Source: Dyella subtropica | Lineage (GTDB): Bacteria; Pseudomonadota; Gammaproteobacteria; Xanthomonadales; Rhodanobacteraceae | NCBI RefSeq assembly: GCF_026283965.1 | Contig: NZ_JAPDPD010000001.1 | Coordinates: 1 to 64,000 of the forward strand | Direction: 5' to 3' | DNA length: 64,000 nt | The notes under the pieces: generated by a model | Databases searched by the model: none | Told to the model about the DNA's origin: nothing | What the model saw: only the letters and a program-made list of their open reading frames with translations | In this document: in pieces, positions 21,795 through 33,246 of the stretch | Numbering within the stretch: position 1 is the first letter of the stretch | Layout of the letters: the number at the start of each line of letters is the position of its first letter | Position numbers and translations under genes: made by a program

Positions 21795-24749
21795 TTAAGG
21801 AGGGTTCACCCCGAGCACGTTCTTCAGCACGATGTCGAGCTGGTGCACGGATGAAGGCTGCTCTTCGCCGTTGACCGGGAACTCTGTGAGGCCATCCAGC
21901 TTCGAGCCATCGTCCACCACGCCTGCCCCCATTCCGAAGATGCCGTGGCTGACGGTTCCAGAGAGCAGATAGTTGTGCTTGGCCATGTCGTCCCAGGTAC
22001 CGTCATCCTTCGCGGTTTTCTGCAACTTGCTCGCGTCACCGCCCACGGTGTCCAGCGCGGAGACCATCGCACCGGCAAACGTCTTCTGCTGGTCCTGACC
22101 AAGCCCGTTGAACCAGGCGATGGTCTGCTGCTGATTCATGCCCTTCTGTTCGCCGTAGTGCAACAACATGCTCGTTGCCGGCGCGTCATTCTTGCTATGC
22201 CATGCGGAGAGTGCGTCGGCGGCATCCTTGCTGTAGCCAAGACCTTGCAGGAATGCCTCGCGACCCGGCACGGCGTGATCGTTCGCCTTCTTGTCCTGAT
22301 AGGAGATCAGGCCAATGGTGCCGACGGCGGTCAGTGCGATACCGACCGGACCGGCCCAGGATCCTGCGCCTAGCGCCCACATGACCGAACCCGTACCCGT
22401 CGTGGCATACAGCGCGGCCTCGGTGCCATCGTGCTTTTCGAAAAGCGAATCGCCTGCTTTCCAGAAATCGAGCGCGCCCGAGGCTCCGTTGATCCAACGG
22501 TCCCAAAGGGTCGTACCGAACTGAGCGATTTTGCCCTTCTCGGGAACCAAACTCAGATGAGAGAGCAATCCGGCAGTTTTCTGGCCGAGGCCGGCCGACG
22601 ACGCCAGCAACGACAAGGAATTGCGAATCTTGTCCTCCCAGCCTTGCTGACCGATGGTACCCATCTTGTCCACCGAGTTGAGAAAGCCCAGGCCGGCTGC
22701 GCTGACACTGAACAAGCGGAAGGACGTGCCTAGCGCTGAGCCCTTGTCGAATGCCTTCATCCCAGAGAGTCGCTTGTCCAGATCCTCGAGATTGTCGGCA
22801 AGCGCTGCTTGCGGATCTTGGGGCAGGTTCGCCAGCGAGAAGGTTTTGGTGATGTTCGCCTTCAACGCCTCGGTGGCCGCCTTGATATCCGCCTGCTTGT
22901 CGCCGCTCATCGCCAGCACGGTGGCCAAGCGGCTATCGTCACCCAGCTTGGTCAGTCCGTCGCAGGTGGTGCGCAACGAATCCAAGTCATTTGCCTTCAG
23001 CCCGGCGCGTAGCTCATTGAGGCGGCCAGCGACATAGTTGGTGCCCAGCTCCTGCATCAGCTTACGTGTGCCCTGGTCGCCCGCTTTGGCGTACAAGGCA
23101 TACATATTGATCAACGACTCGCCTTGCTCCCCCTGCATGACCGTAGGATCGCGTTGCACCGCCAAGCGTATGGCGGCCTGGTTGTTCTCGCTGCCCATCA
23201 CGCTGTTGAGCACTTTACCGATCGCGTCTTTGTCGCCCGGATGGCTGGCGACCCAGTTGCTCAACGCAGCCTGCTGAGACAGCAGATGCTTGCCGTCATC
23301 GGCAAGACGGGTGATCGCGTCGTTGACACTTTGCTTCCACTCCGCCCCCTTCGATTTGCCGTAATTCTCGATCGCCTGATTGAGCTGGTCGGGCGTCATC
23401 GACGCCCCTTCCTTGGCGATCAGGCTATTGAGTTCACCAGCCGCCTGCACATAGGTCTCAACGTCGTTGTCAACCTTCCTGCTTGTTGCATCGGTAGTCG
23501 CTTGCAGCACTTCACCACGCGCCCGGTCGGACCAGTCGTTTGCCATTCGGTCCTTACCGTCGCCGCGCACGTGATCGATGATGTTCAGGGCCAGCGTCGG
23601 ATCGCCTGACTTGGTGGCAGCATCGCTGAGTATCGATATGTTGCCCGGCCATCCCGCCCACACACGCCCATTGGTCATCTGGCTAGCGAGGTCAGCCGCC
23701 AACGCCTGGGCGCCCGCTGGATTCTGCTGGCCCAAGCTGCCGACTATCGAAGACAGGCTCGTCAAGGCAGCCGTCGAGTGCTGCTGCATGTCCTGGCCGT
23801 TGTGGAGGAAAGCGAAATGAGCCAGCTTGTCGAGCTGCGGATGCGCGTCGGCGAGCAGGCTCGCCTTCATCTCTGGCGAAGAAATGCCGGACAGAAGATC
23901 CGCGTAGCGAGCGGAGGAATCCTCCACACCCTGACCGGCCTTGGTGTACTGATCGTAGTTACTGAAGTGCGTGTTGCCGTCATACGGCTGCGCAGCCCAA
24001 TCGGCAGCGGCTTGTAGCGTGTTGCGGTAGGAATCCTGCCCGGTGGCGAGCGCACGCACCTGATCGGAGGACGCGGTTTTCAGCGAGGCATCCAGCGCCA
24101 GTAATTTGTCCTTGGGCGAGCTGTAGCCGCCCTGGTCGTTGTTGGCAAGCAGCGTGTTCGCCTCCTGGGTGTCCACCGCCTGCTGCACCGCTGCGTCGCC
24201 CTGATATCGGGAGACGATATCCTTGCGGATATCCGTAGCGCGGTCGGCCTGCGTCGGCGCAGCGTCGCCCAGCGCCTTGCGTTGCTGAGGCGTGAGCGAG
24301 GTATCCGGCGTACTGAGGCGGGCCTGGACCTCGGCGTCCACCGCCTTGTTCAACTGATCCTGCAAACTGCTTCGCGCATCGGCCAGGTCCTGGACCTCAC
24401 TGCGGTTGCGCGGCGTGACCTGGGCAAGGTTGTGCAGATCCGCCAGCGCCTTGTCCACTTGTTGCTGCGGAGTTGCCTTGGGCTTGTTCGCATCGGCAGC
24501 CGACTGCGCGCTGAGGTCGGCTGGCGGGATGATCAGCACGTCGCCTGGCACAACCTTCAACGACTGGCTGAACTTGCCCGGATTGGCATGCACGATGGCG
24601 TCCTTCGTGGTGCCGAAATGCTGGGCAATGCTGTCCAGTGACGAGTCGGTTCGCTGTACGCGGTAAGACTGCGGCTGCTGAGACGGAGCCGGCTGCGCGG
24701 CGGACAATGCAACAGGAGAGCTCGAAGTATCAAAGTCGCGCGGGATCAT
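21795..24749 (-). CDS. Large LysM-domain T3SS-associated protein, candidate translocator or effector
   Basis: The product is 984 residues if the ATG at 24749 is used (the frame runs on to a TTG at 24863). There is no signal peptide; the first ~27 residues are Ser, Ala, Pro and Gln-rich. A LysM domain lies at about 28-76 (SYRVQRTDSSLDSIAQHFG, ending VPGDVLIIPP). A very long helical, Ala/Gln/Asp-rich body without Cys-rich or enzymatic motifs follows. A Gly/Ala-rich hydrophobic pair of segments near 815-850 (GSVMWALGAGSWAGPVGIAL) precedes a polar C-terminal domain. A CTAGGGA palindrome lies 63 bp upstream. LysM could engage peptidoglycan and the hydrophobic part could insert in a host membrane, recalling HrpK/HrpF-type translocators, but no specific homology is proven. 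Confidence 0.7.
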   Translation of the reverse strand: MIPRDFDTSSSPVALSAAQPAPSQQPQSYRVQRTDSSLDSIAQHFGTTKDAIVHANPGKFSQSLKVVPGDVLIIPPADLSAQSAADANKPKATPQQQVDKALADLHNLAQVTPRNRSEVQDLADARSSLQDQLNKAVDAEVQARLSTPDTSLTPQQRKALGDAAPTQADRATDIRKDIVSRYQGDAAVQQAVDTQEANTLLANNDQGGYSSPKDKLLALDASLKTASSDQVRALATGQDSYRNTLQAAADWAAQPYDGNTHFSNYDQYTKAGQGVEDSSARYADLLSGISSPEMKASLLADAHPQLDKLAHFAFLHNGQDMQQHSTAALTSLSSIVGSLGQQNPAGAQALAADLASQMTNGRVWAGWPGNISILSDAATKSGDPTLALNIIDHVRGDGKDRMANDWSDRARGEVLQATTDATSRKVDNDVETYVQAAGELNSLIAKEGASMTPDQLNQAIENYGKSKGAEWKQSVNDAITRLADDGKHLLSQQAALSNWVASHPGDKDAIGKVLNSVMGSENNQAAIRLAVQRDPTVMQGEQGESLINMYALYAKAGDQGTRKLMQELGTNYVAGRLNELRAGLKANDLDSLRTTCDGLTKLGDDSRLATVLAMSGDKQADIKAATEALKANITKTFSLANLPQDPQAALADNLEDLDKRLSGMKAFDKGSALGTSFRLFSVSAAGLGFLNSVDKMGTIGQQGWEDKIRNSLSLLASSAGLGQKTAGLLSHLSLVPEKGKIAQFGTTLWDRWINGASGALDFWKAGDSLFEKHDGTEAALYATTGTGSVMWALGAGSWAGPVGIALTAVGTIGLISYQDKKANDHAVPGREAFLQGLGYSKDAADALSAWHSKNDAPATSMLLHYGEQKGMNQQQTIAWFNGLGQDQQKTFAGAMVSALDTVGGDASKLQKTAKDDGTWDDMAKHNYLLSGTVSHGIFGMGAGVVDDGSKLDGLTEFPVNGEEQPSSVHQLDIVLKNVLGVNPP

Positions 24750-24811
24750 TTCGCTGCCTGAGGGTTGGCTAGGGGAAGCCACTATTGGAGCGGTCTTCAC
24801 ACAGGCTTGCC

Positions 24812-24829
24812 TATTAGGGTTATCCCTAG
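24812..24829 (-). promoter_or_regulatory. CTAGGGA palindrome upstream of the LysM gene
   Basis: Minus-strand reading CTAGGGATAACCCTAATA, continuing AG. It lies 63 bp ahead of the ATG at 24749 (inside the frame if the distal TTG were used, which argues for the proximal start). Confidence 0.65.
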
Positions 24830-25025
24830 TGTCCGTGGCTGTTGCTGCTGGCCCCGAATCCAAGTGGGCCCCCGATGGCCCAAGGCGACGCTGGCTTCAT
24901 GGGTGCCGACCGCGGCGCTGGTCGCGCGCGGGGTCGGCGATCAACTTCAATGTGTCCCCGTTCGCGCTTTGGTTCTCTATGCATCGCGGCTAGGTGCTTA
25001 CAATCAATTCCGGCGGAATAGCCTA

Positions 25026-26122: not shown

Positions 26123-27061
26123 TCAGCCGGCGAAGTTGATTGAGAACCAGACGGCCGCGACACCTGCGAGGACTGCCGACATCATAGTGATGTGCAAACG
26201 GTGCATAGCAGGCATGATTGCCAGTAGCACGCGCCCACACGTCCGCCCGGTCACAGCCAAAATCAATGCCACCACGCCAGGCAGCAGCCGCTGCGACATG
26301 CCTAGCCCCTCGTCCAAGGATGCAAATCTCGGGGGAAGCCATGCGAGGCCCAGCGCGCCTCCAGCGAACAACAGGCAACTGCTGACAATCATCGTCACCA
26401 CTGCAAAGGCGCTCGGGTCGGCGGCCCACTTGTCAAACCGCACATACGTTGCCCGCAGGGCTGCAACACACCTCGTCCAGACAAGACACGCGATCGCGGC
26501 CGACGCGTTGATGCGAGCGCGGACGTTGCGCAGGTTCGTAGCGCCGGCTGCCGCGCCTGCTGCCAGCGCAAACCACGGAAAGGGTACCCATAGGAAGCCC
26601 ACGATCAGGAGTCCCGCATCGGGATAGCCTGAGACCGCCAGAATCGCCGTGAAACTCAAGTAGGCCAGCAACGCCACGACGACACCGCGCAGCGCGCCGT
26701 ACGACTCCGCGCCATCGCGGGGATAGAGCACCCAAGCCCAGCCATACGCGCAGGCCGCCGCTAGGAACGGCATAGCAATCGCCAGTGGACGAGATGGCGG
26801 TAGCAGGAGCGGTGTAAGCAACGCCGCCGTGCCCAGCGCGACCACGGCAAAGAAGCTGGCGGCAAATACTCGCGTCCGGGGCTTGGCGATCAAGGGAACC
26901 AAGTGCAGTTGCTCGCGAAGGAACAGTGTGCTTGCGGTTATATCAAAACCGGGGGACGTCGAGAGTACAGCTCCGTTACCTCCGCCCCATCTTCCGCTGC
27001 GTTTCCTGCTGTAAGTCCAACGTGACCCGGATTTCCGCGCCGGGTCCCGTCTAGGTGTCAT
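26123..27061 (-). CDS. Multi-pass membrane protein of unknown function
   Basis: The product is up to 312 residues; the start is uncertain because the first ~60 residues are basic and low-complexity and may not be translated. From about residue 68 there are roughly seven to eight hydrophobic helices (VFAASFFAVVALGTAALL, FLAAACAYGWAWVLYP, then AGLLIVGFLWVPFPWFALAA and others), ending in MMSAVLAGVAAVWFSI. The region DITASTLFLREQLHL near residue 40 is encoded inside an 84-bp sequence repeated at 28094-28178. No enzymatic motif seen; a YIP1-like or uncharacterised integral membrane protein is possible. Confidence 0.6.
   Translation of the reverse strand: MTPRRDPARKSGSRWTYSRKRSGRWGGGNGAVLSTSPGFDITASTLFLREQLHLVPLIAKPRTRVFAASFFAVVALGTAALLTPLLLPPSRPLAIAMPFLAAACAYGWAWVLYPRDGAESYGALRGVVVALLAYLSFTAILAVSGYPDAGLLIVGFLWVPFPWFALAAGAAAGATNLRNVRARINASAAIACLVWTRCVAALRATYVRFDKWAADPSAFAVVTMIVSSCLLFAGGALGLAWLPPRFASLDEGLGMSQRLLPGVVALILAVTGRTCGRVLLAIMPAMHRLHITMMSAVLAGVAAVWFSINFAG
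26861..26944. repeat. Direct repeat, left copy (partner at 28094-28178)
   Basis: Starts GGCAAATACTCGCGTC and includes CTTGGCGAT and GGGAACCAAGTGCA, ending GCGGTTATATC. The same sequence with about ten differences occurs 1.2 kb away, so the pair flanks the gene at 27124-28023. Confidence 0.85.
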
Positions 27062-27123: not shown

Positions 27124-28023
27124 ATGACGACACGATCCAAGGGACCGTCGGCCGGTTTTAGCTGGCTGACGAACGGCATCACCGTGGGCTTCCGCCATCC
27201 GAAGCCGTTGCTAGGAGGGGCAGCCTTCCTGATGGTGGCATGCCTGTTGCCGACGCTGATCACGATGCCGATGCAATTCCAAGCGGCTATCACCAGCACA
27301 CCGATGAGTCCGGCAACCTTTGGTTGGATCATGGCAATCTCCATGCTGGCCGGTCTGCTGATCGTGCCGCTCTACGCGGGCTATCTGCAGGTGATCGATA
27401 CAGCCGAGCGCGGGTTGCCAGCACGCGCACTCGACATCTTCAAACCCTATCGACAAGGCGAAGCGTTGCGCCTGATCGGCTACGGACTGGCGGTCATGGT
27501 GGCCTACGTCGCCGTGCTCGGAGTCATTGTCGTTGCCACGGGAGGCAGCATCGCCACCTGGTACATGCAAGTAGTGACTGCACAGACTACCCATCAGCCG
27601 CCACCGGCGTTACCCCAAGGCTTCGGAATCGCCATGGCACTTTTCATGGTGCTCTGCCTTTTCATGATGGGTTTCTATGCAATCAGCCTTGGCCAGGTCG
27701 CGCTGCGCCGTCGCAGCGTATTCGGCGCCATCGGCGATGGCATAGTCGGCGCGCTGAAGAACCTGCTGCCACTACTCGTGTTTGCAGTGAGCCTCATCCT
27801 TGGCTGGATTGTCGTGGGAATTGCCTTCGCGCTCGTGGCCGTTCTACTCGCCCTGCTTGGGACGCTCGTCGGCACATGGCTGATGTTCGTGCTGATCATT
27901 CCGCTCTATGTCGCCTTGATGCTGACGATGTTCGCGGTGATGTTTGGGGTGATGTATTACCTATGGCGTGATGTGTGTGGGGATGACATTGTCACTGGCA
28001 TGGCCGAGGCGACAGCCATCTGA
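27124..28023 (+). CDS. BPSS1780-like integral membrane protein
   Basis: The product is 299 residues from the ATG at 27124, which follows a GGGAGGACACT ribosome site. It has about six transmembrane helices grouped in pairs and the opening block FSWLTNGITVGFRHPKPLLGG. An IPLYAGYLQVIDTAERG segment and a later MGFYAISLGQVALRR loop follow, and it ends in a MYYLWRDV segment. This layout resembles BPSS1780/DUF-type proteobacterial membrane proteins whose function is unknown. The upstream gene on the opposite strand nearly abuts it, and the 84-bp direct repeats lie on both sides. Confidence 0.75.
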   Translation: MTTRSKGPSAGFSWLTNGITVGFRHPKPLLGGAAFLMVACLLPTLITMPMQFQAAITSTPMSPATFGWIMAISMLAGLLIVPLYAGYLQVIDTAERGLPARALDIFKPYRQGEALRLIGYGLAVMVAYVAVLGVIVVATGGSIATWYMQVVTAQTTHQPPPALPQGFGIAMALFMVLCLFMMGFYAISLGQVALRRRSVFGAIGDGIVGALKNLLPLLVFAVSLILGWIVVGIAFALVAVLLALLGTLVGTWLMFVLIIPLYVALMLTMFAVMFGVMYYLWRDVCGDDIVTGMAEATAI

Positions 28024-28093
28024 CCTGAGGAAACGGGAGGGAGGTAGTTGAATGGAATTAACCACCGCCGTCCCGTTTTCCGTTTTCTGCTCC

Positions 28094-28178
28094 GGCAAAT
28101 ACTCGCGTCGGAGGCTTGGCGATCGAGGGAACCAAGTGCAATTTGCTCGCGGAGGAACAGTATGCTTACGGTTATATC
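28094..28178. repeat. Direct repeat, right copy (partner at 26861-26944)
   Basis: Same sequence as the left copy, placed in the 261-bp gap between the membrane protein and the first tcmP-like gene. On the minus strand it could encode a short piece similar to the DITxSxLFLREQ segment of the gene at 26123, so it may be a truncated duplicate of that gene's 5' part. Confidence 0.8.
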
Positions 28179-28284: not shown

Positions 28285-29118
28285 ATGCCCACACAAAAAG
28301 ACGATGACCGCTACGAAATCGACCCTGAGGACAGGTTGCGGCGGGCGATCGTCGGAGACTGGGCGCCTGAGAAACATTTGCGCCTTCAAAAATATGTGGA
28401 CATTACCCGAGCGGTCAGGCGGAAATTCGGCGGCAACGCCACCTACATCGACCTCTATTGCGGCCCAGGGCGCGCTCGCTTGCGCAAAACAGGCGAGGTG
28501 GTGGAAGGAAGCGCGTTAGTCGCCGCCACTGAAGCCATCCGGCGTCGGAACCCCTATCGGGAGGTCATCATCGGTGACCTCGACCCGGTAAACGTCGAGG
28601 CCTGCGAAACCCGCTTGAGCCGCCTCAGGGTTGGTAATGTCCGCGCCTATGCGGGAACCGCGGAGGACGTGGCTGCCCAGATCCTCCCCACCCTCCATCC
28701 GACCGGCTTCAATCTGGCCTTCCTGGATCCCTTCAACCTTGAATCCCTTCCCTTCCAGGTGATCCAAACCCTTGCGCAAGCCAAGAGCATGGACCTCCTC
28801 ATTCATGTCAGCATCATGGACTTGCAGCGCAACGTCCGCGCCTTGATGACCTCGGGCAAGCTCAGCAGCTTTGCCCCGGGGTGGGACAAGAAGATCAACA
28901 GCGCAGCCGCCAATCCCAAGTTGGTCATGGCGGTGTTTGAATACTGGCGAAGCCTTTTGTCGCAGCTCGGCTATCTCGTCAGCGACAACATCGAGCGTGT
29001 GACCGGAAACCGAAATCAACCCCTCTATTGGCTGGTGCTGGCCTCCAAGCATGACCTGGCAGACAAGCTGTGGGGCGAGGTCAGCCAAGTGGAACCCCAG
29101 GGGCGGCTACTGCTCTAA
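28285..29118 (+). CDS. tcmP: Three-Cys-motif partner protein (TcmP family), first copy
   Basis: The product is 277 residues with a GGGAGG ribosome site. The fold looks like a Rossmann methyltransferase: motif I YIDLYCGPGRARL near 53-65, an acidic strand end IIGDLDPVNVEAC near 95-107, and AFLDPFNLESLPF near 145-157, where DPF takes the place of the DPPY-type motif. These match the TcmP family, defined by co-occurrence with a three-Cys Gp37/Gp68 protein, which is the next gene. Substrate unknown. First of four co-directional genes ending at tRNA-Ser. Confidence 0.85.
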   Translation: MPTQKDDDRYEIDPEDRLRRAIVGDWAPEKHLRLQKYVDITRAVRRKFGGNATYIDLYCGPGRARLRKTGEVVEGSALVAATEAIRRRNPYREVIIGDLDPVNVEACETRLSRLRVGNVRAYAGTAEDVAAQILPTLHPTGFNLAFLDPFNLESLPFQVIQTLAQAKSMDLLIHVSIMDLQRNVRALMTSGKLSSFAPGWDKKINSAAANPKLVMAVFEYWRSLLSQLGYLVSDNIERVTGNRNQPLYWLVLASKHDLADKLWGEVSQVEPQGRLLL

Positions 29119-29239
29119 CCCGCGGCGACTGTCCCATCGATGGGGACTATGTTAGAAATGCTTGGTTTAGGCCGGGCTGGTCGGATCGTCGCGGTTGGCG
29201 AGATCCGCCAGGAGCAGGATGGCCCACAACGGGTGGACC

Positions 29240-29983
29240 ATGACGACAACATCACGCATCGAATGGACTGAGCAGACCTGGAACCCCATTGTCGGGTGCA
29301 CCAAGGTGTCCGCGGGCTGTAAACACTGCTATGCGGAAGTGATGGCCAAGCGGCTCAGAGCCATGGGCACGCCTGGCTACGAAAAGGGGTTCGCCCTCCG
29401 GTTGATCCCCGAACGCCTCAACGATCCCGTACGGCGCAAGAAGCCCACCGTCTACTTCGTGAACTCCATGTCGGACCTGTTCCACGAGCGGGTGCCGGTG
29501 GACTACATCGACAAGGTCTTCGAAGTCATCACTCAGACCCCGCACCACCACTATCAGATTCTGACCAAGCGCGCGGAGCGCATGGCCAGTTACTTCACTT
29601 CCCGGCCTGTTCCGAAGAATGTCTGGTTGGGCGTGTCCGTGGAGAACAAGCGCCACGGGGTGCCCAGGATCGACTTCCTGCGCAAGGTGCCCGCCAAGAT
29701 TCGGTTTCTTTCCGTCGAGCCCCTCCTGGAAGACGTTGGCCCCCTGGACCTGAAAGGCATTCATTGGGTCATCGTGGGTGGAGAATCCGGGGCCAAGGCC
29801 CGCCCCATGAAGCCCGAGTGGGCAGACGCTGTCCGCATCCAATGCCAGAAGCAAAAGGTGGCCTTTTTCTTTAAGCAATGGGGAGGCTGGGGCGCTGACG
29901 GAAAGAAGCGGGCCAAGTCAAAGAACGGCCGTTTGCTAAATGGTCGCACCTGGGATCAAATGCCTGCCGGGGTCCAAATCTAG
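29240..29983 (+). CDS. Gp37/Gp68 (DUF5131) three-Cys-motif protein, radical-SAM-like
   Basis: The product is 247 residues from the ATG at 29240; the frame is open upstream but the family begins at SRIEWTEQTWNPIVGC. The eponymous cluster CTKVSAGCKHCYAE (C-x6-C-x2-C) near residues 18-31 resembles a radical-SAM iron-sulfur site. Other family blocks are FVNSMSDLFHE, YQILTKRAERM, VWLGVSVENK, RFLSVEPLLEDVG, WVIVGGESGAKARPM and FFFKQWGGWG. The family is common in phages and islands, function undetermined. It lies 9 bases ahead of the second TcmP gene, so the two are coupled. Confidence 0.9.
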   Translation: MTTTSRIEWTEQTWNPIVGCTKVSAGCKHCYAEVMAKRLRAMGTPGYEKGFALRLIPERLNDPVRRKKPTVYFVNSMSDLFHERVPVDYIDKVFEVITQTPHHHYQILTKRAERMASYFTSRPVPKNVWLGVSVENKRHGVPRIDFLRKVPAKIRFLSVEPLLEDVGPLDLKGIHWVIVGGESGAKARPMKPEWADAVRIQCQKQKVAFFFKQWGGWGADGKKRAKSKNGRLLNGRTWDQMPAGVQI

Positions 29984-29992
29984 GCAGGTGCA

Positions 29993-31261
29993 ATGCCACG
30001 CAAGCCTTTTGAATGGCCAGCGGATGGGTCTGGGGCAATTCTTCAACAACACAGCGTCGCCAAGTTGGAAGTGCTGCGGGAGTATCTCCTCGCCTACTTC
30101 AAGACGCTGGCCACCGCTCCTGGACAGGAAGAAATACGCGTAACGCTCGTCGACGGATTTGCGGGCGGCGGCGTCTATCGTCACGCCGACACGCAAGAGC
30201 GGATCCTGGGTTCTCCGCTGGTGTTCTTGAAGGCGGCAGAACAGGCGCAGGCCATCATCAATGCCGAACGCCGTAAGCCCCTTCACTTCAATATCACCTA
30301 CATCTTCGTCGAGAAGAACCGCAATGCGATCAAGTCACTGTTGATCACATTGAAGAATGAGGGATATGAGCACCGCTTGGGCGCGGACATCCACGTCATC
30401 AACAGCACGTTCGAGCGGCAGCTCGATGCCATCATCAGGGCAGTTAAGGAGCGGACTCCTCGTCGAGGGCGCGCCCTCATCTCCCTGGATCAGTATGGCT
30501 ACAAAGATGTGCCCGCGCCGTTGATCAAGCGATTGCTTCAGGAACTCCCCCGCGCAGAGATCGTGCTGACATTCGCGGTGGATGCCTTCATTAACTTCGC
30601 CAGCGATAACTTGGCCACCTGGGAAACCCTGGACCACCTCGGCATTCCCGAGGTGCTCAAAGGGCGCACCTTCCAGGAGATCAAAGCCAACGAAAGCCAT
30701 TTTCGGCTCTACATCCAGAGTTGCCTCTACCACGGGCTTACCGAGGCCTGTGGCGCCAGCTACTACACCTTGTTCTTCATCCGGACCGATGGACACGGCG
30801 ACTACTGGCTGGTCCATTTGTCGCAGCATCCAAAGGCCCGGGATGTCATGACTCAAGTTCATTGGACCAAGAACACCCATTTCATCCATTACGGCGGCGC
30901 GGGTTTGGACATGTTCCGCGCCATCGGTTACCACGCCGGCAGCGACGAGCGATACACGGGCCAGAGCTCATTGGCTTTTGGCTTCGACGACCCGGCCAAT
31001 GAGAGAAGCATTGCCCTTCTGACGGAGCAGTTGGTTCGACTCATCCACGCCCGTGAAATCGTCCGCTTTGGCGAGATGTATTCGACGACCTGCAATTCAA
31101 CGCCGGCGGACAGTCAGCGTTACCGAAAAGCTCTCGAAAACCTGGTAGCCCACAAGGAAATCATCATCACAAGCCCCAAAGGTGGACAACGTCGCAAAGC
31201 GACCACCATAGATGATGACGACGTGATCCAGATGGCCGCCCAACGGACGCTCTCGCTGTAA
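29993..31261 (+). CDS. tcmP: Three-Cys-motif partner protein (TcmP family), second copy
   Basis: The product is 422 residues, longer than the first copy, with the more typical family start FEWPADGSGAILQQHS and VTLVDGFAGGGVYRHAD (motif I) near 50-66. IFVEKNRNAIKSLL follows the acidic strand. The third motif reads ISLDQYGYKDVP, with DQ where the first copy has DPF. A C-terminal extension of ~130 residues holds a winged-helix-like stretch (RYRKALENLVAHKEIII). Two diverged TcmP proteins around one three-Cys protein suggest a hetero-complex. Spacing is 9 bases from DUF5131 and 53 from the nuclease-like gene. Confidence 0.85.
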   Translation: MPRKPFEWPADGSGAILQQHSVAKLEVLREYLLAYFKTLATAPGQEEIRVTLVDGFAGGGVYRHADTQERILGSPLVFLKAAEQAQAIINAERRKPLHFNITYIFVEKNRNAIKSLLITLKNEGYEHRLGADIHVINSTFERQLDAIIRAVKERTPRRGRALISLDQYGYKDVPAPLIKRLLQELPRAEIVLTFAVDAFINFASDNLATWETLDHLGIPEVLKGRTFQEIKANESHFRLYIQSCLYHGLTEACGASYYTLFFIRTDGHGDYWLVHLSQHPKARDVMTQVHWTKNTHFIHYGGAGLDMFRAIGYHAGSDERYTGQSSLAFGFDDPANERSIALLTEQLVRLIHAREIVRFGEMYSTTCNSTPADSQRYRKALENLVAHKEIIITSPKGGQRRKATTIDDDDVIQMAAQRTLSL

Positions 31262-31314
31262 CGCCGCCACAGTCAGTTTCTGTCACGGATAGATCCCAAA
31301 TATCTCGCGTCGCC

Positions 31315-32538
31315 ATGCTTACCATCACCCATCCCGAACTAATGGCCGAGGCCATCGCCTTTCCCGCTGGATTGCGCGCCCTGCGCATCGGTGGTGCCCC
31401 GCGCCCTATTCTCATGATCAAAGGCACCAAGGAAGTGCTTCTGACTGCGCGCGTGAATAGGGGCTTCAAGTTATATGTCGTGCCGTCCACGATCGATGGA
31501 AGTTCCACCATCGGACTCATCACCGCGTTCTTCGATGATGGAGACGAGCCGCTGGTCTTACGGACGCCCATGTTCGACGAATTTGAGACCAGATTTCTAA
31601 GATCAGTGCTATTACGTCCGGAGCTAGACGTCCATCTGTTTGATGAACTTGGAAGAGAGTTTCTTGGCTTCCGCACCACCGTTTCCATGCCATTGGAAAC
31701 CAGGCTTCGTCTCGAAATGGCAAACCTGTTGCCGTTCTCATACGCGGGGGCAAGAGCCATGGACGACCACATGCAGCTCTGGTTTGGGCTTCGAACGTCA
31801 GCAGAGGATGCAAACACAATTTCAGTTGACTTTGCAGAGCCCCTATTTCCCGAAGATATTTTCCTCAGCGATATGCGGCCGGCCCACCACGCTTATCACG
31901 GCAGCTCAGGGCACAGCCACACATCATTGGTTCGAGAAGAGCCTGGTGCCTATCAGGAGCGTGACATCGTCGACCTGTTGTGCCGCGTGTTTCGGCCCGA
32001 TCAAATCTTCCTTGCTCCGTTGAGGTCGACTGACAAGGAGGAGATTGCTGACGTCATGGTGGTCACCGACAGCCATCTTATGCTGATCCAGGCCAAGGAT
32101 AGCCCGAACACCGAGAGCACCTTGCGCCAGACAATGGCAAGGAAGCGTGCGCATTCTTCGCAAAAATTAAAGGCAGCGCTCGGCCAGGTGAAAGGCGCAG
32201 TCAAATACGTGCGGTCGCAATCGCCATTGGCGTTCTTCATCGGTGATGACAAGCATGTGCGCTCGGTGGATCACCTCAACATCGCCACCCTGGTGATCCT
32301 GAAAGAGCTGTTTAATGACTCGTTCCGTGAATACAGCGAACAGATGCTTGCATTGGTCCATGACATCAACGTTCCGTCTATCGCCCTCGATTACGGTGAA
32401 CTCAACATGTATACCGCCCACCTCCCGAACGAGGACTTGTTCTTCGAGGCTTATTACCGGGTGATCAACACCGGCATCGAGGTTGGACAGCTTCCGCGAC
32501 TCAGGTTTGGAATGATTGAACCTGAGGCCGATGAATAA
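31315..32538 (+). CDS. Probable PD-(D/E)xK (NERD-like) nuclease-domain protein of the TcmP cluster
   Basis: The product is 407 residues, no signal peptide or membrane segment. An N-terminal ~200-residue region without recognised motifs is followed by a nuclease-like core at about 215-265. The core reads ERDIVDLLCRVF (helix with Glu), EEIADVMVVTD (strand with Asp), then HLMLIQAKDS, giving the E...D...QxK order of NERD/PD-(D/E)xK enzymes. The C-terminal ~110 residues look alpha/beta. It is the last gene before the tRNA-Ser repeat region and reads in the same direction as the tcmP-DUF5131-tcmP genes. Active nuclease is an inference from the motif. Confidence 0.65.
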   Translation: MLTITHPELMAEAIAFPAGLRALRIGGAPRPILMIKGTKEVLLTARVNRGFKLYVVPSTIDGSSTIGLITAFFDDGDEPLVLRTPMFDEFETRFLRSVLLRPELDVHLFDELGREFLGFRTTVSMPLETRLRLEMANLLPFSYAGARAMDDHMQLWFGLRTSAEDANTISVDFAEPLFPEDIFLSDMRPAHHAYHGSSGHSHTSLVREEPGAYQERDIVDLLCRVFRPDQIFLAPLRSTDKEEIADVMVVTDSHLMLIQAKDSPNTESTLRQTMARKRAHSSQKLKAALGQVKGAVKYVRSQSPLAFFIGDDKHVRSVDHLNIATLVILKELFNDSFREYSEQMLALVHDINVPSIALDYGELNMYTAHLPNEDLFFEAYYRVINTGIEVGQLPRLRFGMIEPEADE

Positions 32539-32588
32539 CTGTCGGAAAAGGGATCGGAGACATTTGTACCTCTGCCTCCAGCAGGCCG

Positions 32589-32733
32589 TGGGATTGTTCG
32601 GCCCATCCATGGGCCGAACCCCTCCGCGCGGAGCGCTACGAGGCCAGCCTGCGGCTGTCCTTGTCGTTCCAGACGAATTTGTCGAACTTAGTGGGTTCGT
32701 CCACACCACTCTCTCTGCCAGATACGCAAAACG
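32589..32733 (+). repeat. 145-bp direct repeat with tRNA-Ser 3'-end remnant, copy 1
   Basis: Starts TGGGATTGTTCGGCCCATCC and ends GCCAGATACGCAAAACG. The last 43 bases (32691-32733) resemble the 3' end of the nearby tRNA-Ser plus its downstream sequence, with the T-arm partly scrambled (GTGGGTTCGTCCACACCACT). The second copy lies 182 bp downstream. Confidence 0.8.
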
Positions 32734-32770
32734 GCCCGGGCTTCGACAAGGGCCTTGTTAGCGTGAAGGG

Positions 32771-32915
32771 TGGGATTGTTCGGCCCATCCTTGGGCCTCA
32801 CCCTTCCGCGCTGCGCGCTCCAGGGCCAGCCTTCGGCTGTCCAAAATTGTTCCGGACAATTTTGTCGAACCAGTGGGTTCGTCCACACCACTCTCTCCGC
32901 CAGATACGCAAAACG
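32771..32915 (+). repeat. 145-bp direct repeat with tRNA-Ser 3'-end remnant, copy 2
   Basis: Same unit as 32589-32733, diverged in the middle. Its tRNA-like end (32873-32915) faces the intact tRNA-Ser in inverted orientation, creating the perfect inverted repeat at 32889-32955. Together these fill the 403-bp gap 32539-32941, where I see no gene. Confidence 0.8.
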
Positions 32916-32955
32916 CCCCACTAGGGGGCGTTTTGCGTATCTGGCGGAGAGAGTG
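32889..32955 (-). terminator. Perfect 31-bp inverted repeat at the tRNA-Ser 3' end
   Basis: Two 31-base arms with a 5-base loop ACTAG. The right arm includes the acceptor stem and CCA of tRNA-Ser, so the hairpin overlaps the mature 3' end rather than lying beyond it. GCGTTTT/AAAACGC in the stem could end tRNA transcription, but the overlap suggests its origin is an inverted att-like duplication. Confidence 0.6.
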
Positions 32956-33031
32956 GGATTCGAACCCACGGTAGGCTTACACCTACGGCAGTTTTCAAGA
33001 CTGCTGCCTTAAACCACTCGGCCATCTCTCC
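32942..33031 (-). tRNA. tRNA-Ser(UGA)
   Basis: The 90-base minus-strand sequence starts GGAGAGATGGCCGAGTGG and ends with encoded CCA. The anticodon loop is CTTGAAA (anticodon TGA), the long variable arm CCGTAGGTGTAAGCCTACC-like stem is typical of class II tRNAs, and GGTTCGAATCC is the T-loop. The seryl-tRNA synthetase gene lies about 600 bp upstream on the same strand. Confidence 0.97.
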
Positions 33032-33155: not shown

Positions 33156-33195
33156 TCAAGACTGCTGCCTTAAACCACTCGGCCATCTCTCCGAA
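33156..33195 (-). repeat. Partial tRNA-Ser: 5' half only
   Basis: These 40 bases are identical to 32995-33034: the tRNA 5' end, D-arm and 5' side of the anticodon arm, broken in the anticodon loop, plus four bases of upstream sequence. The 3' half is missing and replaced by ~120 bp of unrelated GC-rich DNA. It looks like a relic of integration or recombination at the anticodon loop. Confidence 0.85.
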
Positions 33196-33246
33196 TTTTT
33201 CGCTGCCCTATCTTGCATCGGGCAACGTTTGAGCCGCGACATCTTA

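What the first reader, a model, noticed from the sequence alone, without database searches (positions are those of the whole stretch)
28285..32538. TcmP - DUF5131 - TcmP - nuclease-like gene set next to tRNA-Ser
Four co-directional genes combine two diverged TcmP proteins (DPF versus DQY in the third motif), a three-Cys radical-SAM-like Gp37/Gp68 protein, and a protein with an E...D...QxK nuclease pattern. The family names only record co-occurrence; no biochemical role is established that I know of. The island position at a tRNA with att-like debris, plus a nuclease candidate, suggests a mobile defence or nucleic-acid modification system.
Basis: partly seen in the sequence, partly recalled or inferred. 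Interest (0 to 1): 0.78.

Follow-up and report, generated by a model that had tools for sequence, protein, structure and literature searches.

The report
Two-methylase radical-SAM module beside lone nuclease
Four neighbouring bacterial genes turn out to be two separate things parked at one variable spot next to a tRNA gene: a three-gene enzyme set that probably modifies RNA or DNA and is already suspected of fighting phages, and an unrelated, so far unnamed, nuclease-like gene whose relatives often lie near other phage-defence systems.

Summary
The four genes are real and the motifs are as described. They are best read as 3+1, not one system. (1) Short TcmP - DUF5131 - long TcmP: the pair is tightly linked (16 of 16 fetched loci of the order; 34 of 37 viral loci of the near clade), matches the untested PADLOC candidates PDC-M30/M41, and TcmP is kin to the rRNA methyltransferase RlmJ. 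The window's set is a mosaic: its DUF5131 nests among DUF5131-long pairs, its short TcmP beside a short-DUF5131 operon. One DUF5131 with two TcmPs recurs in several arrangements. (2) Gene 4 is a rare, unnamed family with invariant E, D and QxK, weakly but above decoys alignable to NERD and Mrr nucleases. Of 22 relatives 1 lies beside TcmP, and that copy is broken while TcmP is under strong purifying selection. Six of 12 scanned gene-4 loci hold strong matches to defence genes such as Gabija, Septu, SEFIR or type I R-M. The site is a cargo hotspot (a sister species has a helicase-nuclease and a DUF4238 gene there), but the 'att-like debris' is a repeat found beside tRNA-Ser genes across the genus.

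The parts
28285..29118 (+). short TcmP (277 aa), class I methyltransferase-like; D-P-F at 28726-28734
   Evidence: TIGR04474 157.8 bits, cut-off 53; PDC-M41A E 1.3e-12; groups 100/99 with the short TcmPs of L215 and L221
29219..29983 (+). DUF5131 (Gp37/Gp68) protein, radical-SAM-like; start 29219 chosen for its AGGAG, 29195 and 29240 also possible
   Evidence: PF07505 E 1.7e-111; PDC-M30B E 1.7e-115, PDC-M41B E 7.9e-114
29297..29329 (+). CX6CX2C three-cysteine motif (C26, C33, C36 of P0002)
   Evidence: invariant in 19 of 19 aligned proteins, the window's included
29993..31261 (+). long TcmP (422 aa), class I methyltransferase-like with D-Q-Y-G-Y at 30488-30502
   Evidence: TIGR04474 214.5 bits; PDC-M30A E 6.4e-26; invariant motif in 8 of 8 aligned; dN/dS 0.066 against L002
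30947..31183 (+). GMT-like winged-helix domain of the long TcmP (residues 319-397)
   Evidence: PF22560 E 2.6e-13, over cut-off
31315..32538 (+). gene 4: solitary nuclease-like protein (407 aa); no match in Pfam, NCBIfam or PADLOC at E <= 1
   Evidence: family alignment A5 of 18
31897..32535 (+). C-terminal nuclease-like half of gene 4; E215 at 31957-31959, D246 at 32050-32052, QxK (259-261) at 32089-32097
   Evidence: hhalign against NERD and Mrr above decoys; the half occurs alone in L123
28081..32587 (.). stretch without a blastn counterpart in the 18 kb fetched at the same site of sister species G001; holds exactly the four genes
32588..32957 (.). repeats found beside tRNA-Ser genes in this genus (units 32588-32737 and 32770-32919, reaching the tRNA end)
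32942..33031 (-). tRNA-Ser (TGA)

Best explanation
Two independent cargoes sit together in a variable site beside tRNA-Ser. Cargo A is a DUF5131/TcmP module carrying both TcmP classes. Proposed working: DUF5131 binds a 4Fe-4S cluster through C26/C33/C36 and uses SAM to make a radical that alters a nucleic-acid base; the TcmPs, RlmJ-like class I enzymes, bind SAM and methylate the same or a nearby base. The long one places the enzyme through its winged helix; the short one, with the nearer-canonical D-P-F, is the likelier N-methylating partner. I favour an RNA substrate (tRNA or rRNA) because of the RlmJ kinship, so that phage growth is blocked without an obligate nuclease. Cargo B, gene 4, is a separate PD-(D/E)XK-like nuclease with an N-terminal half of unknown function, acting alone against invading DNA or RNA. 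Shown here: family membership, linkage, mosaic origin of the triad, conserved residues, separation of gene 4 from TcmP in nearly all relatives seen. Inferred: all chemistry, the substrate and the defence role.
For: Linkage: DUF5131 adjacent to TcmP in 16 of 16 fetched loci of the order and in 34 of 37 viral loci at >=55% identity with >=800 bp on both sides, against 1 of 28 below 55%. Candidate defence status: PDC-M30/M41 matches; PMC10855318 (passages) calls PDC systems putative and not experimentally validated, with PDC-M30 in 32 of 100 P. aeruginosa strains, 68.8% of them resistant. Methyltransferase kinship: besides 15 genomes over the cut-off, 37 of 299 genomes give only sub-cut-off TIGR04474 matches (best E 5.5e-7); in 5 of 5 of these that I checked the place is the RsmJ/RlmJ gene PF04378; hhalign short TcmP v RlmJ E 0.0016. 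Mosaic: DUF5131 of the window in a DUF5131-long clade (99/93), its short TcmP with a short-DUF5131 operon (100/99). Two TcmPs with one DUF5131 recur: G692, G377, G320, G292, and plasmids of Burkholderia glumae, Paraburkholderia and Acidovorax. Gene 4: invariant E, D, Q, K; NERD E 0.0025 and Mrr E 0.0034; no TcmP near 21 of 22 relatives; next to Gabija (L115) and SEFIR (L003), about 1 kb from Septu (L119) and type I R-M (L004).
Against: No activity of any kind is shown. hhalign probabilities are low (11.7, 9.5 and 16.1%), although a positive control, NERD v Mrr, itself reaches only 53%; the long TcmP v RlmJ gives only E 0.1; in the Mrr alignment the E215 region is not covered. In Pfam one gene-4 member matches an unrelated family (RAB3GAP2_N, E 0.013) better than any matches NERD. 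The window's own genome has an RlmJ gene that TIGR04474 does not report at E <= 0.001. No solved structure is a significant match to the DUF5131, TcmP or gene-4 profiles. DUF5131 lacks the canonical CX3CX2C spacing (recalled). Long TcmPs lack the DPP[YF] motif of amino-methylating enzymes. L002 keeps the long TcmP - gene 4 junction, so the two have travelled together at least once, and gene 4 lies 53 bp downstream on the same strand and could share a transcript. PADLOC neighbour scans were on proteins chosen by hand: 21 of 40 matched at E <= 1e-5, some weakly or to non-defence parts, against 2 of 10 hand-picked housekeeping controls, one of them strongly (E 5.6e-50). Of 9 TcmP loci scanned 5 had no match.
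Confidence: 0.6

Rival explanations
1. One four-gene restriction-modification-like system: DUF5131 and the TcmPs mark self DNA and gene 4 cuts unmarked DNA.
For: Same strand, small gaps (100, 9 and 53 bp); the TcmP-long - gene 4 junction is shared with L002; gene 4 looks nuclease-like.
Against: 1 of 22 gene-4 relatives lies near TcmP and that one is broken while TcmP-long stays intact with dN/dS 0.066; none of the 16 fetched TcmP loci of the order, G692's equal triad among them, shows gene 4. Loss of the nuclease alone is survivable, so L002 by itself does not exclude this.
Confidence: 0.12
2. The DUF5131/TcmP module is a counter-restriction or self-marking device of mobile elements (it modifies the element's own DNA) and not host defence.
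For: It is common on mobile elements: 75 viral loci of DUF5131, DUF5131 in 161 phage and 409 plasmid records; Gordonia phage Easley has the pair next to its repressor and near its integrase.
Confidence: 0.22
3. Gene 4 is not a nuclease but a regulator or sensor with a decayed nuclease-like fold.
For: Weak profile scores; no significant solved-structure match; Q in place of the usual D/E.
Against: E, D, Q and K are invariant in 18 of 18 aligned members; fetched Mrr proteins have QxK at that place.
Confidence: 0.2

Closest known systems
PADLOC phage-defence candidates PDC-M30 and PDC-M41 (TcmP-like A plus DUF5131 B)
   Same: DUF5131 next to a TcmP; P0002 matches M30B/M41B at E about 1e-115, P0003 M30A, P0001 M41A
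   Different: Here one DUF5131 serves an M30A-like and an M41A-like partner at once; that PADLOC defines them as two-gene sets is read from the A/B naming; untested by experiment (PMC10855318 passages)
RlmJ (YhiR), 23S rRNA m6A2030 methyltransferase, class I fold (PMC4119055 passages)
   Same: Motif I region and motif IV position align with the short TcmP; TIGR04474 finds it below its cut-off
   Different: The fetched RlmJ proteins have DPPF; the TcmPs have DPF or DQY; the long TcmP adds a winged helix
Radical SAM mobile pair protein A (TIGR04471)
   Same: DUF5131-like; 98.5 bits over residues 18-219
   Different: Far below its cut-off of 355; neither neighbouring TcmP matches pair protein B, TIGR04470
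NERD and Mrr_cat nuclease domains (PD-(D/E)XK)
   Same: Gene 4 aligns with NERD over E, D and ExK, with Mrr over D and QxK; 4 of 18 members touch NERD, best E 0.036
   Different: No gene-4 member reaches a Pfam cut-off in the matches seen; long own N-terminal half; Q in the third place as in Mrr

Membership tests
TcmP (TIGR04474) | curated score cut-off 53 bits | tested here: met
   157.8 and 214.5 bits
DUF5131 (PF07505) | gathering score 28.9 | tested here: met
   372 bits
PDC-M30 / PDC-M41 | A and B components encoded side by side | tested here: met
   gaps of 9 and 100 bp. PADLOC's own cut-offs were not shown
PDC-M30 / PDC-M41 | protects against phage | not testable with these tools
   no experiment in the passages seen
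Radical SAM superfamily | three cysteines for a 4Fe-4S cluster | tested here: met
   C26, C33, C36 invariant in 19 of 19 aligned; the cluster itself not tested
Radical SAM superfamily | canonical CX3CX2C spacing (recalled) | tested here: not met
   spacing is CX6CX2C; some radical SAM families differ (recalled)
Radical SAM superfamily | TIM-barrel fold | not testable with these tools
   structure prediction off; profile against solved structures gave only RimO at E 0.28 and chance matches
Radical SAM mobile pair protein A (TIGR04471) | cut-off 355 bits | tested here: not met
   98.5 bits
RlmJ (PF04378) | motif IV DPP[FY] | tested here: not met
   DPF and DQY; no PF04378 match at E <= 1 for P0001 or P0003
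PD-(D/E)XK nucleases | conserved E/D ... D ... [E/D/Q]xK | tested here: met
   E215, D246, Q259, K261 invariant in 18 of 18 aligned
PD-(D/E)XK nucleases | homology to a known member | tested here: inconclusive
   E 0.0025 and 0.0034, probabilities 11.7 and 9.5%; decoys at most 2.2%
NERD (PF08378) | gathering score | tested here: not met
   best member E 0.036; P0004 no match at E <= 1
Four-gene restriction-modification-like system | nuclease gene conserved beside the modification genes | tested here: not met
   1 of 22 gene-4 relatives, and broken; none of 16 TcmP loci
Site-specifically integrated island at a tRNA | direct repeats of the tRNA end at both borders | tested here: not met
   no copy found near 28080; repeats on the tRNA side occur beside tRNA-Ser genes generally. 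G001's cargo at the same tRNA does have a second copy 8.4 kb away

The most novel reading that the evidence does not exclude
Gene 4 founds a new stand-alone antiphage nuclease family (own N-terminal sensor half plus a QxK nuclease half) carried by defence islands, plasmids and prophages; and the triad is a two-methyltransferase radical-SAM machine that makes a new base modification, assembled repeatedly because the two TcmP classes work together on one DUF5131.
Probability: 0.3. Interest if true: 0.78.

Novelty: new variant of a known kind. Interest (0 to 1): 0.5.

Why it matters
DUF5131/TcmP is a common, mobile and, in the passages seen, untested enzyme pair. The repeated joining of two TcmPs to one DUF5131 gives a concrete test of whether they cooperate, and the RlmJ kinship names the first substrate to look at. 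Gene 4 is a small, unnamed family whose company (Gabija, Septu, SEFIR, type I R-M) makes it a cheap new candidate for an antiphage nuclease.

Tried and rejected
Wrong accession: one search searched PF18556 (a TetR domain) by mistake and says nothing about TcmP. A first hhalign run read minus-strand loci on the wrong strand and is void; one search repeats it correctly. Solved-structure profile searches gave only chance matches. Gene 4 has no match in phage records. The idea that the tRNA-side repeats are att remains was tested and dropped for the window. A promoter/terminator scan found no promoter-like site and no more terminators than shuffles. The GC of gene 4 (54.0%) is below that of the triad genes (56.9-59.7%) and of the window (62.6%), which fits a separate origin but proves nothing. 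The GC3 value printed for the upstream gene was off frame and is not used. G313's gene-4-like match (E 6e-4, two stops) was dropped before counting relatives. Five DUF5131 rows (L038, L230, L103, L079, L041) were left out of the tree by name, besides rows under 60% identity or 180 residues, so the Burkholderiales triads (38-39% identity) are not in it. In the short-TcmP tree several long branches exist, so deep joins there are unsure.
Full report
Observation. The window holds four co-directional genes at 28285-32538. The first and third are TcmP proteins over the curated cut-off, the second is DUF5131, the third ends in a GMT-like winged helix, the fourth has no match at E <= 1 in Pfam, NCBIfam or PADLOC and a weak one in PHROGs (phrog_30399, unknown function, E 7.6e-4).

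The DUF5131/TcmP module. Among 299 genomes of the order, 15 have TcmP over the cut-off. I fetched 16 loci, which cover every over-cut-off match listed except the window's own locus, and all 16 have DUF5131 beside TcmP, one of them (L230) with both genes broken. In viral contigs 75 DUF5131 loci were found. With >=800 bp on both sides, 34 of 37 with at least 55% identity to P0002 have an adjacent TcmP, against 1 of 28 below that; without the length condition it is 35 of 46 and 1 of 29. The more distant phage DUF5131 proteins thus mostly do without TcmP. Two arrangements dominate the near clade: a long TcmP follows on the same strand (5), or a short (11) or diverged (18) TcmP faces DUF5131 tail to tail.

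Two TcmPs on one DUF5131. G692, another genus of the family, has the same order and orientation as the window. In 398 genomes of the phylum, 24 have TcmP at E <= 1e-20 and 4 of them (G000, G320, G377, G292) have two TcmPs within 3 kb, each with one DUF5131. G377 has clear members of both classes; in G320 the second is only weakly short-like and in G292 it belongs to neither class clearly. Plasmids of Burkholderia glumae, Paraburkholderia phenoliruptrix and Acidovorax add further arrangements. The tree of 60 DUF5131 proteins puts the window and G692 inside a clade whose other three members have only a long TcmP (99/93); the tree of 19 short TcmPs joins them to L221, a short-DUF5131 operon of the same order (100/99). 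The window's triad is therefore best read as a fusion of two pairs that kept one DUF5131. The Burkholderiales triads have DUF5131 proteins only 38-39% identical, so I take them as separate joins, without a tree. That such joins happened more than once suggests that the two TcmP classes work together, but does not prove it.

What the proteins may do. TIGR04474 also gives matches below its cut-off: 37 of 299 genomes have only such matches. I then searched PF04378 (RsmJ/RlmJ) in 6 genomes: in the 5 that had such a match the two places overlap; the sixth, G000, has an RlmJ gene that TIGR04474 does not report. hhalign joins the short TcmP to RlmJ over motif I and the DPPF region (E 0.0016), the long one hardly (E 0.1). 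RlmJ is a class I m6A methyltransferase of 23S rRNA (PMC4119055, passages). So TcmP is most likely an RlmJ-like class I enzyme in which the catalytic motif has changed to DPF or DQY. DUF5131 has three invariant cysteines as in radical-SAM enzymes but not the canonical spacing, and no solved structure is a significant match. I infer joint base modification, more likely of RNA; this is not shown.

Defence status of the module. It matches PADLOC candidates PDC-M30 and PDC-M41. PMC10855318 (passages) calls PDC systems putative and not experimentally validated, and reports PDC-M30 in 32 of 100 P. aeruginosa strains, 68.8% of them resistant. PMC12445080 (passage) lists a TcmP gene next in its table to the Hna defence gene of Sinorhizobium meliloti, with a similar change of expression. 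PMC12429752 (passages) lists TcmP among prophage genes. Searches of the held library (listings seen) showed me no experimental study of the module; most subscription papers and bioRxiv preprints are not in it. Of 9 TcmP loci whose hand-picked neighbours I scanned, 4 had a PADLOC match: HmaC and ThsA (L220), LmuB-like (L217), PDC-M45B (L215), PDC-S28 (L226); L216, L221, L222, L228 and L229 had none.

Gene 4. It is rare: absent from 60 relatives, present in 3 of 398 phylum genomes including the window's own, one of them degenerate, on 4 of 72,556 plasmid records, in no phage record, in 16 viral contigs and, besides, in one MAG contig. In the alignment of 18 members 23 columns are invariant, among them E215, D246, Q259 and K261. 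The C-terminal half stands alone in L123. Against decoys of 2.2% at most, hhalign gives 11.7% (E 0.0025) for NERD, with E, D and QxK/ExK in register, and 9.5% (E 0.0034) for Mrr, with D and QxK in register and E215 outside the aligned part; the positive control NERD v Mrr gives 53%. In Pfam 4 of 18 members touch NERD (best E 0.036) and one Hjc (0.11), but one member also touches the unrelated RAB3GAP2_N at E 0.013. This supports a PD-(D/E)XK-like nuclease without proving it.

Gene 4 is mostly separate. Of 22 relatives outside the window (L002, four plasmids, 16 viral contigs, G292; some are near copies, and flanks of up to 8-9 kb are one-sided or short at contig ends) only L002 lies beside TcmP. 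There gene 4 carries a stop and ends early, while the long TcmP is 94% identical to the window's with dN/dS 0.066. G292 has both gene 4 and a two-TcmP module, but on different contigs. Neighbours of 12 gene-4 loci were scanned; 10 had a PADLOC match at E <= 1e-5 and 6 one below 1e-20: L002 (dCTP deaminase type, SoFic), L003 (SEFIR, next to gene 4), L004 (type I restriction about 1 kb away; a DUF4238 gene follows), L006 (NucC-like protein next to it), L115 (Gabija next to it, CBASS 1.8 kb further; L116 is a near copy, not scanned) and L119 (Septu about 1 kb away). Weaker: L032 (Sir2, E 5e-15, 6.5 kb away), L034, L035, L122. None: L033, L114. In five P2-like prophages gene 4 lies in the run of tail genes (L030, L031, L117, L118, L120), between the genes that I read as S and V where both sides are seen (L031, L117, L120; gene names recalled). 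All scanned proteins were chosen by hand: 21 of 40 matched PADLOC at E <= 1e-5, including one of three from G001's cargo, against 2 of 10 housekeeping controls, one strongly (exonuclease-like, E 5.6e-50).

The site. Against the 18 kb fetched from sister species G001, homology breaks at about 28080 and resumes at 32588, so exactly the four genes are extra. At the same tRNA-Ser G001 carries a 1514-aa helicase-nuclease (PDC-S37 E 1.1e-63, MTES_1575 REase domain), a gene without family and a DUF4238 gene (a defence link that I recall; PADLOC gave no match) between two copies of a 94-bp repeat (97.9% identical) 8.4 kb apart. That makes the tRNA-Ser/serS flank a cargo hotspot. The repeats themselves are not special to insertions: 11 of 12 fetched stretches with a copy hold a tRNA gene, 10 of them tRNA-Ser; the one without is the far border of G001's cargo. 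In the window no copy was found at the left border.

Verdict. Real genes, right motifs, right general setting; wrong unit. A mosaic two-TcmP DUF5131 module (untested defence candidate) plus an unrelated solitary nuclease candidate. New variant of a known kind, with a new unnamed family as the most interesting part.

Noticed in passing
32588-32957: Repeat units beside tRNA-Ser genes (anticodons cga, gct, tga) in several species of the genus, often in more than one copy; function unknown.
   Followed up: partly
26860-26944 and 28093-28178: An 86-bp direct repeat (90.7% identical) on both sides of the membrane-protein-like gene at 27124-28023; a stretch near the end of that gene also matches G001 in the other orientation.
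   Followed up: no
33156-33201: A 46-bp copy (95.7%) of the 5' half of tRNA-Ser about 125 bp beyond the gene.
   Followed up: no
G000:C6:26993-27751 (locus L222): A third TcmP of the window's genome, of a diverged class, with its own DUF5131.
   Followed up: partly
21795-24863, minus strand: 1022-aa ORF with a LysM domain and no other Pfam match.
   Followed up: no
L217 and L230 (G637): One genome holds an intact DUF5131-long TcmP pair and a second, frame-broken copy of both genes.
   Followed up: no
L002:2218-5551: A dCTP deaminase-type and a SoFic-type gene next to the truncated gene 4 in a Lysobacteraceae MAG.
   Followed up: partly
L123:7986-8615: The nuclease-like half of gene 4 alone, near a gene that I read as a filamentous-phage assembly ATPase (recalled, not searched).
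   Followed up: no
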